A stretch of DNA of 64,000 nucleotides from an endosymbiont of Bathymodiolus septemdierum str. Myojin knoll (lineage in GTDB: Bacteria; Pseudomonadota; Gammaproteobacteria; PS1; Pseudothioglobaceae): positions 310,001 to 374,000 of the forward strand of contig NZ_AP013042.1 of assembly GCF_001547755.1 (NCBI RefSeq), written 5' to 3'. Positions 58,418 through 59,119 of this stretch are shown here, in pieces (within the stretch, counting starts at the first letter, position 1; every line of letters begins with the position of its first letter). Below the pieces are notes generated by a model, which had not been told where the DNA came from, searched no databases, and saw only the letters and a list, made by a program, of their open reading frames with translations. A program made the position numbers and the translations under genes.

Positions 58418-58442
58418 AACTTATACGCCGGGCTTATAAGTT
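58418..58442. repeat. REP palindrome, copy 1 (upstream of the transposase)
   Basis: AACTTATACGCCGGGCTTAT plus AAGTT, a 25-nt imperfect palindrome (8-bp outer stem, 3-bp GCC/GGC inner stem). It lies 8 nt before the transposase ATG and is the reverse complement of copy 2. Confidence 0.9.
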
Positions 58443-58449
58443 TGTTATA

Positions 58450-59103
58450 ATGATTGATATGGCTCAAAGACAAACCATTATTCTAACTGATAATTATTAC
58501 CATGTATTCAATCGTGGCATTGACAGGCGTGTCATATTTCAGGATAGGGAAGATTTGAAGTATTTTCTTGATAGAATGCATGATTTTAATAATACAGAAT
58601 CATTTGGAGGGGTTTACCATCAAAATTTGCCTTGCAATCAAAAACTTATAAGCCCGGCGTATAAGTTGGTAAGTATTGTTGCTTACTGTTTATTACCTAA
58701 TCATTTTCATTTGATTTTAAAGCCACAAGTTGAAAATGGTGTTGCTAAATTTATGCAACGACTGTGCACAGGATATGTTAAATTTTTTAATAAAAAGTAT
58801 CAGCGTTCTGGAGCATTATTTCAAGGTAGATTTAAGGCGAATCAAATTGAAGGGTATGAGGCGCTATCTTTTTTATCTGTCTATGTTAATTTGAATTATC
58901 GTCATCATAGAATTGATCCGCAGAAAAATTTAGTTTCCTCTAGTTTTTCCAGTTATTTAGGCGTAAACGATAACATTCTTGACATTGAAGAAGTTAATCA
59001 AATTATTGACAGTATGAATTCTTATGAAGAATATGCTTATTTACAGTCTGATTATTTTACTCAGAATAAAGATTATACTAAAAATATAAATGATGACTTA
59101 TAA
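58450..59103 (+). CDS. REP-associated tyrosine transposase (RAYT, Y1/HUH)
   Basis: A 217-residue single-strand DNA transposase of the TnpA_REP type, thought to spread or maintain REP palindromes. The HUH motif is LLPNHFHLILKP (about 78-89); the catalytic Tyr is probably in the following helix with GYVKFFNKKYQRSGALFQGRF (shown in part). The N-terminus has DNYYHVFNRGIDRRVIF, typical of the group. The start could be 58450 or the Met at 58459. A REP copy lies inside the coding region (58643-58667), encoding about nine extra residues between strand blocks, and the stop codon lies within a third copy. Confidence 0.93.
   Translation: MIDMAQRQTIILTDNYYHVFNRGIDRRVIFQDREDLKYFLDRMHDFNNTESFGGVYHQNLPCNQKLISPAYKLVSIVAYCLLPNHFHLILKPQVENGVAKFMQRLCTGYVKFFNKKYQRSGALFQGRFKANQIEGYEALSFLSVYVNLNYRHHRIDPQKNLVSSSFSSYLGVNDNILDIEEVNQIIDSMNSYEEYAYLQSDYFTQNKDYTKNINDDL
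58643..58667. repeat. REP palindrome, copy 2 (inside the transposase gene)
   Basis: AACTTATAAGCCCGGCGTAT plus AAGTT, exact reverse complement of copy 1. It is in frame and encodes KLISPAYKL just before the HUH motif block. Confidence 0.9.
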
Positions 59104-59119
59104 GCCCGGCGTCTAAGTT
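59095..59119. repeat. REP palindrome, copy 3 (overlapping the transposase stop)
   Basis: GACTTATAAGCCCGGCGTCT plus AAGTT. Same orientation as copy 2, with two differences from it. The transposase TAA stop lies within it. Confidence 0.9.

What the first reader, a model, noticed from the sequence alone, without database searches (positions are those of the whole stretch)
58418..59119. RAYT transposase with REP palindromes on both sides and one inside its own gene
Three copies of the same 25-nt imperfect palindrome surround and invade the gene. The internal copy is in frame, adding about nine residues before the HUH motif, and the stop codon itself lies in copy 3. REP insertion into its own transposase without loss of frame is noteworthy.
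Basis: seen in the sequence. Interest (0 to 1): 0.6.

Follow-up and report, generated by a model that had tools for sequence, protein, structure and literature searches.

The report
Transposase gene carrying its own palindrome
A small transposase-like bacterial gene has its repeat palindrome on both sides and, in frame, inside itself; relatives suggest that the inner copy replaces part of an existing loop instead of lengthening the protein, and similar palindromes sit in other genes too, a clue to how such repeats spread.

Summary
In detail: three copies of one palindrome at 58418-58442, 58643-58667 and 59095-59119; the middle one is in frame in a Y1/HuH (RAYT-like) transposase and the last holds the stop codon. 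The palindrome occurs at 8 places in the 1.47 Mb genome and in none of 57 relatives (up to 2 mismatches). 'Insertion adding nine residues' is not supported: of 27 homologues without an inner copy, 25 are one or two residues longer before HuH, and the nearest homologue (73%) has its own genome's palindrome at the same codons. Of 64 transposase ORFs, 9 carry an inner palindrome matching their own flanks (controls 1 of 1280, 0 of 1280). The same REPs lie in frame in housekeeping genes; some sites gained codons (nadC, rnfC), others none (pepN, dapD, thiL, gltB, priA). Best explanation: RAYT-linked REPs both insert and overwrite partly matching DNA, so coding copies can follow a change of REP type. 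The overwriting step is inferred; one test of it was not significant. In-frame REPs in a RAYT gene and in other genes are already in print (PMC6006769, PMC3733652); position, equal length and co-divergence of coding copies seem new.

The parts
58418..58442 (.). REP palindrome copy 1 (core CGCCGGGCT), inverted relative to copies 2 and 3, just 5' of the gene
58450..59103 (+). RAYT-like Y1/HuH transposase ORF, 217 aa (214 aa from the second ATG at 58459)
   Evidence: Pfam Y1_Tnp 30.8 bits against cut-off 23; NCBIfam REP_Tyr_transpos 27.1 bits, below its cut-off of 80
58643..58667 (.). REP palindrome copy 2, in frame, encodes part of KLISPAYKL in the stretch before the HuH strand
58702..58710 (+). 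HuH motif (H-F-H)
   Evidence: sequence; H85 and H87 invariant in the five rows of alignment A1
58882..58884 (+). candidate catalytic tyrosine (YVNLN), 58 residues after the second H
   Evidence: Y145 invariant in five rows; the same spacing in all 35 homologues in which both motifs were found; catalytic role inferred
59095..59119 (.). REP palindrome copy 3 (one mismatch in the 23-nt core; outermost base also differs), contains the stop codon TAA at 59101-59103

Best explanation
The gene is a RAYT-like HuH transposase with its cognate REP palindrome: inverted copies on both sides and one in frame inside. The inner copy sits in a variable stretch before the HuH strand and takes the place of residues there instead of adding to them. 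In this genus RAYT-linked REPs appear to spread both by insertion and by overwriting short stretches that already partly match. The likely course (inferred, no step shown biochemically) is that the RAYT cuts single-stranded REP hairpins and that REP strands, or template switching onto a REP, convert partly matching sites during replication. Such conversion would also keep coding and non-coding copies alike, so that the inner copy follows when the genome's REP type changes.
For: Pairing of REP and RAYT: 31 of 64 transposase ORFs share a palindrome (up to 3 mismatches) between both flanks, control 9 of 640; 9 of 64 have an inner palindrome within 2 mismatches of their own flanks, controls 1 of 1280 (flanks of other genes) and 0 of 1280 (codon-shuffled) (one gene is in the 64 twice, without an inner copy). 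Same place: in this gene, in G007 (73%) and in G011 (52%) the palindrome centre is 40.5 nt before the PNH codons although the palindromes differ. No added length: 60-66 aa in the 5 genes with a pre-HuH copy; 27 of the 30 others are 65-66, the rest 62, 52 and 50, the last (G002c) measured from a wrong anchor. Co-divergence: G000 and G007 types differ at three base pairs, changed on both sides in copy 1 and the inner copy; copy 3 and pepN of G000 show five of the six base changes. Equal-length coding copies, no gap in the footprint: dapD and thiL (G002), gltB (G005), priA (G007), pepN (G000 and G007). Best match of congeners falls on the same codons in 9 of 9 for dapD (7-9 mismatches), 9 of 10 for thiL (5-8) and 5 of 10 for gltB (2-8). 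In dapD the carrier is less like its congeners in the footprint (0.57-0.67) than in the flanks (0.69-0.81) in 9 of 9 pairs, while other pairs average 0.80 and 0.78.
Against: A test for carrier-private bases in the footprint was not significant in any of 5 genes (p 0.16 to 1). In thiL and gltB the carrier's footprint is also below its flanks in 10 of 10 pairs each, but so are non-carrier pairs on average (0.70 against 0.78; 0.64 against 0.82), so only dapD gives a clean contrast. Best chance matches elsewhere in a segment reach 7-10 mismatches of 21 for the same pattern (purL, glcD), so 7-9 in dapD is telling only because it is at the same codons. Several coding copies did change length: nadC +13 aa, rnfC +6, glcD +4, purL +1 to 2, ileS 0 to +2, gcvP +1 to 3, epmB up to +4; two of three gene-end sites (trkA, hemF) are net gains. 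Selection on the protein alone could leave only near-match sites. pepN and lpxK vary in all congeners there. No activity was tested.
Confidence: 0.5

Rival explanations
1. Plain in-frame insertion: the REP transposed into its own transposase gene, and frame and function survived by selection.
For: REPs do insert in this genus: nadC of G005 has 13 extra residues that include the whole palindrome, rnfC of G007 and G003 has 6, and gene-end copies beside trkA and hemF add tens of bases. Inner REPs of subclass 2.4 genes are described as insertions. The paralogue G000b is 12 residues shorter before PNH.
Against: 25 of 27 homologues without an inner copy are longer there than this gene. Six coding sites elsewhere (dapD, thiL, gltB, priA, pepN in two genomes) have no gap in the footprint. 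An insertion followed by a deletion of similar size is not excluded.
Confidence: 0.3
2. The inner copy is kept for a job: a binding or cutting site, or an mRNA hairpin, through which the RAYT regulates its own gene or acts first on its own locus.
For: Same spacing to PNH in three diverged genes and sequence that follows the flanks. The label is clustered on the tree (12 of 500 shuffles as low).
Against: 23 of the 31 genes with matched flanks had no inner copy in the test, one of them (G007c) missed by it. The tree needs 5 changes of the label, 4 forced. The same REPs lie in unrelated genes.
Confidence: 0.15
3. Chance or ordinary drift made coding sequence look like the palindrome.
For: Private-base test not significant; gltB of G000 is only 2 mismatches from the G005 REP.
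Against: 0.00 expected in window shuffles; reversed-pattern controls gave 0 in every genome; codon-shuffled genes never came within 3 mismatches of their flanks.
Confidence: 0.05

Closest known systems
TnpAREP subclass 2.4 (RAYT group 4) with in-frame inner REPs, Quentin et al. 2018, PMC6006769 (one section and passages read)
   Same: REPs flank the gene and also lie inside it without breaking the frame, in a variable region
   Different: There the inner REPs are generally between HuH and Y, with a median HuH-Y distance of 88; here the distance is 58 and the copy lies before HuH, or behind the tyrosine in G002c, G024b and G098a. Their REPs have GT[AG]G feet; of the 8 copies in this genome only copy 1 has a GTAG nearby
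Intragenic REPs, De Nocera et al. 2013, PMC3733652 (one section and passages read)
   Same: REPs in frame in many genes; REP ends supplying stop codons
   Different: Described as insertions; equal-length replacement was not mentioned in the parts read; GTAG or CGTC tags define those families
Rickettsia palindromic elements (RPE; known here through PMC3733652 and recall)
   Same: Short palindromic repeats in frame in unrelated proteins
   Different: Sequence relation and transposase link not tested here
REP-RAYT coevolution and 'orthoswitch', Nunvar et al. 2010 and 2013, PMC2817692, PMC3686654 (passages read)
   Same: REP-rayt-REP unit in inverted orientation; REP type changes together with its RAYT
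   Different: Here coding copies, inside the RAYT and in pepN, carry the change too

Membership tests
Y1_Tnp / IS200-like HuH transposases (PF01797) | Profile match above the curated cut-off, HuH and a tyrosine | tested here: met
   30.8 bits against 23; H85, H87 and Y145 invariant in five sequences; Tyr role inferred
REP-associated tyrosine transposase, NCBIfam NF047646 | Score above the equivalog cut-off | tested here: not met
   27.1 bits against 80
[quoted passage not shown]
   only 8 copies, against the >100 per genome given as usual in the abstract of PMC2817692
Canonical GTAG/CGTC-tagged REPs | Tetranucleotide tag at the hairpin foot | tested here: not met
   read by eye: a GTAG lies 1 nt from copy 1 only, 1 of 8 copies in this genome; other genomes not checked
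TnpAREP subclass 2.4 | Inner REP between HuH and Y, enlarged HuH-Y distance | tested here: not met
   HuH-Y 58, inner copy before HuH; the subclass profiles themselves were not available
RAYT activity | Binding and cutting of the cognate REP as single-stranded DNA | not testable with these tools
   needs biochemistry

The most novel reading that the evidence does not exclude
REPs of this genus spread largely by homology-tolerant overwriting: single-stranded REP copies made with the help of the RAYT anneal to partly matching DNA and replace it base for base, so that a selfish palindrome can convert conserved coding sequence (dapD, thiL, gltB, pepN, its own RAYT) without an indel and can keep updating those sites when its own sequence changes.
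Probability: 0.3. Interest if true: 0.8.

Novelty: new variant of a known kind. Interest (0 to 1): 0.5.

Why it matters
How REPs spread is stated to be poorly understood (PMC8266576, abstract and passages). Equal-length REPs at conserved codons, beside plain insertions in sister species, point to conversion as a second route that can be tested by strain sequencing and in laboratory strains. If true, a selfish repeat writes itself into housekeeping proteins and those copies follow changes in its transposase's REP type.

Tried and rejected
Rejected: that the palindrome is a chance pattern; that it is unique to this gene; that the inner copy adds residues; that relatives share this very palindrome (0 of 57 at up to 2 mismatches); quasi-palindrome repair within one site, because by eye neither arm of the dapD or thiL orthologs gives the REP arm.

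Led nowhere: structure prediction from a 5-row alignment was poor (mean pLDDT 43.1) and carries no weight here; no fold search was made. A search of solved structures gave only chance matches (haemoglobins, E 0.27 and above). The private-base test was not significant. A first detector script listed no inner copies at all; it was checked and rewritten with a lower stem score. Searches aligned loci without turning those on the minus strand and were redone. Paper searches showed nothing on equal-length REP replacement in their listings (titles and starts of abstracts; capped lists); that is no proof that it is not in print. The genome length made me recall a deep-sea mussel symbiont; none of the 6 papers listed by a search with that number held it.

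Dropped or missed: G007c (inner palindrome seen, L129) was missed by the automatic test because the start taken lies behind the palindrome. Many of the 64 ORFs are short or of other transposase groups; tree and length comparison used 35. The 64 are not all hits. Orthologs were held for 10 to 12 genomes per gene; for rnfC 6 of 11 congeners were fetched. trkA was compared in 12 genomes, trmD in 10, hemF in 8.

Full report
Observation. The 23-nt consensus occurs 3 times in the window with up to 3 mismatches, 0.00 expected, and at 8 places in the 1,469,434-base genome: the three here; the end of trmD, where it supplies the stop codon as copy 3 does here; in frame in pepN; beside the trkA stop; and an overlapping pair at 934358 and 934378. 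None of 57 relatives has it at up to 2 mismatches.

The gene. The ORF 58450-59103 is a Y1/HuH transposase, too far from the NCBIfam REP-transposase model to pass its cut-off. Its paralogue G000b (51% identity) has another palindrome on both sides and none inside.

Relatives. The best homologue (G007, 73%) has three copies of a different palindrome at the same three places. The two types share the core AGCCCGGCG and differ at three base pairs, changed on both sides. Its surroundings differ: alignment of the two loci covers only the gene with its palindromes. G011, G005 and G002 have genes with yet other palindromes, again on both sides and inside before HuH; in G002c, G024b and G098a the inner copy lies behind the tyrosine. 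Of 64 ORFs, 9 have an inner palindrome within 2 mismatches of their flanks, against 1 of 1280 and 0 of 1280 in the controls; in one of the nine, G098b, only one flank matches. On a tree of 35 rows (34 different) the label, given to 8, needs 5 changes, at least 4 forced by well supported branches, so inner copies arose or were lost repeatedly. The stretch before HuH does not grow with the palindrome.

Other genes. REP types were counted in 12 congeners, own genome included. G007 type (up to 3 mismatches): 13 in G007, 2 in G003, 1 each in G006 and G008. G011 type: 5 in G011, 4 in G005, 3 in G002. G005 type: 26 in G005, 8 in G007, 3 in G000, 2 in G003, 1 each in G004, G008 and G009. Two G002 types: 14 in G002 alone; 11 in G002, 6 in G005, 2 in G007. 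Of the 13 in G007, 7 lie in frame inside genes (RAYT, pepN, lpxK, epmB twice, ileS, priA) and one more near the start of rnfC, where a later start is possible. Gene names are my reading of the proteins; no call named them.

Two kinds of coding copy. With gained codons: nadC (+13), rnfC (+6), glcD (+4), purL (+1 to 2), ileS (0 to +2), gcvP (+1 to 3), epmB (up to +4). Without: dapD, thiL, gltB, priA; pepN in G000 and G007, equal in length to 9 of 11 congeners (two are 2 codons longer); lpxK against four congeners (six are one codon shorter, one is longer). Congeners already resemble the REP at the same codons: dapD 9 of 9 (7-9 mismatches of 21), thiL 9 of 10 (5-8), gltB 5 of 10 (2-8), lpxK 3 of 11 (7-8 of 25), priA 2 of 10 (5-6 of 25). 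For dapD, identity to the carrier drops in the footprint while non-carriers keep it; for thiL and gltB non-carriers also drop. A test for carrier-private bases found nothing in five genes, since nearly every REP base occurs in some other genome. By a rough reckoning of my own, not from a call, chance would give far fewer than one such near-perfect match per genome.

Two REP types at pepN. By the first 325 residues of pepN G000 is closer to G002 (85%) and G005 (83%) than to G007 (80%), and those two have no REP there. So the site was hit twice, or an old REP was lost in the others. G003 has a decayed G007-type copy (4 mismatches) and no close relative of this RAYT among the matches (best 47%).

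Gene-end copies. Beside trkA (G000) and hemF (G007) the REP comes with tens of extra bases absent in most congeners held (by eye); G002 has a REP of another type at the same trkA end. trmD could not be decided because its ends vary.

Mechanism. Shown: palindromes paired with RAYT-like genes, inner copies in frame, no added length, co-divergence. Inferred: that this RAYT cuts them (shown in vitro for the E. coli enzyme according to PMC8266576, passages) and that copies overwrite partly matching DNA. Random overwriting filtered by selection on the protein would leave the same picture as annealing to near matches.

Place among known things. Inner in-frame REPs are a stated feature of TnpAREP subclass 2.4, and intragenic REPs are known from many species. 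This case differs in position, in the missing tag and in the equal length; hence a new variant of a known kind.

Noticed in passing
L017 (G000:C1:976400-979000): Second RAYT-like gene of the genome with its own long palindrome CCTAAGCCCGGCTTAG..TAAGCCGGGCTTAGG on both sides, and a further copy beyond the next gene.
   Followed up: partly
L179 and L198 (epmB of G007 and G006): Two REP copies side by side in frame in epmB of G007; G006 has a copy with 3 mismatches at about the same place.
   Followed up: partly
L328 (G000) and L336 (G002), behind trkA: Two species have REPs of different types right behind the trkA stop codon.
   Followed up: no
G002:C1 48716, 55815, 83071, 88810, 90027: Five matches with identical scores to a distant Y1 transposase in one genome, perhaps a recently multiplied IS200-like element.
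   Followed up: no
L129 (G007:C6): A RAYT-like frame with an inner palindrome 23 codons from the start of the open frame; the N-terminal part is missing from that frame, so it may be broken.
   Followed up: no
L322 (G098 C26): A distant transposase (27% identity) has a matching palindrome inside (codon 217 of 236) and upstream.
   Followed up: no
L102, L108 (G005) and L103, L106 (G011): Pairs of REPs about 46 and 121 bases apart, outside long open frames, REPIN-like.
   Followed up: no
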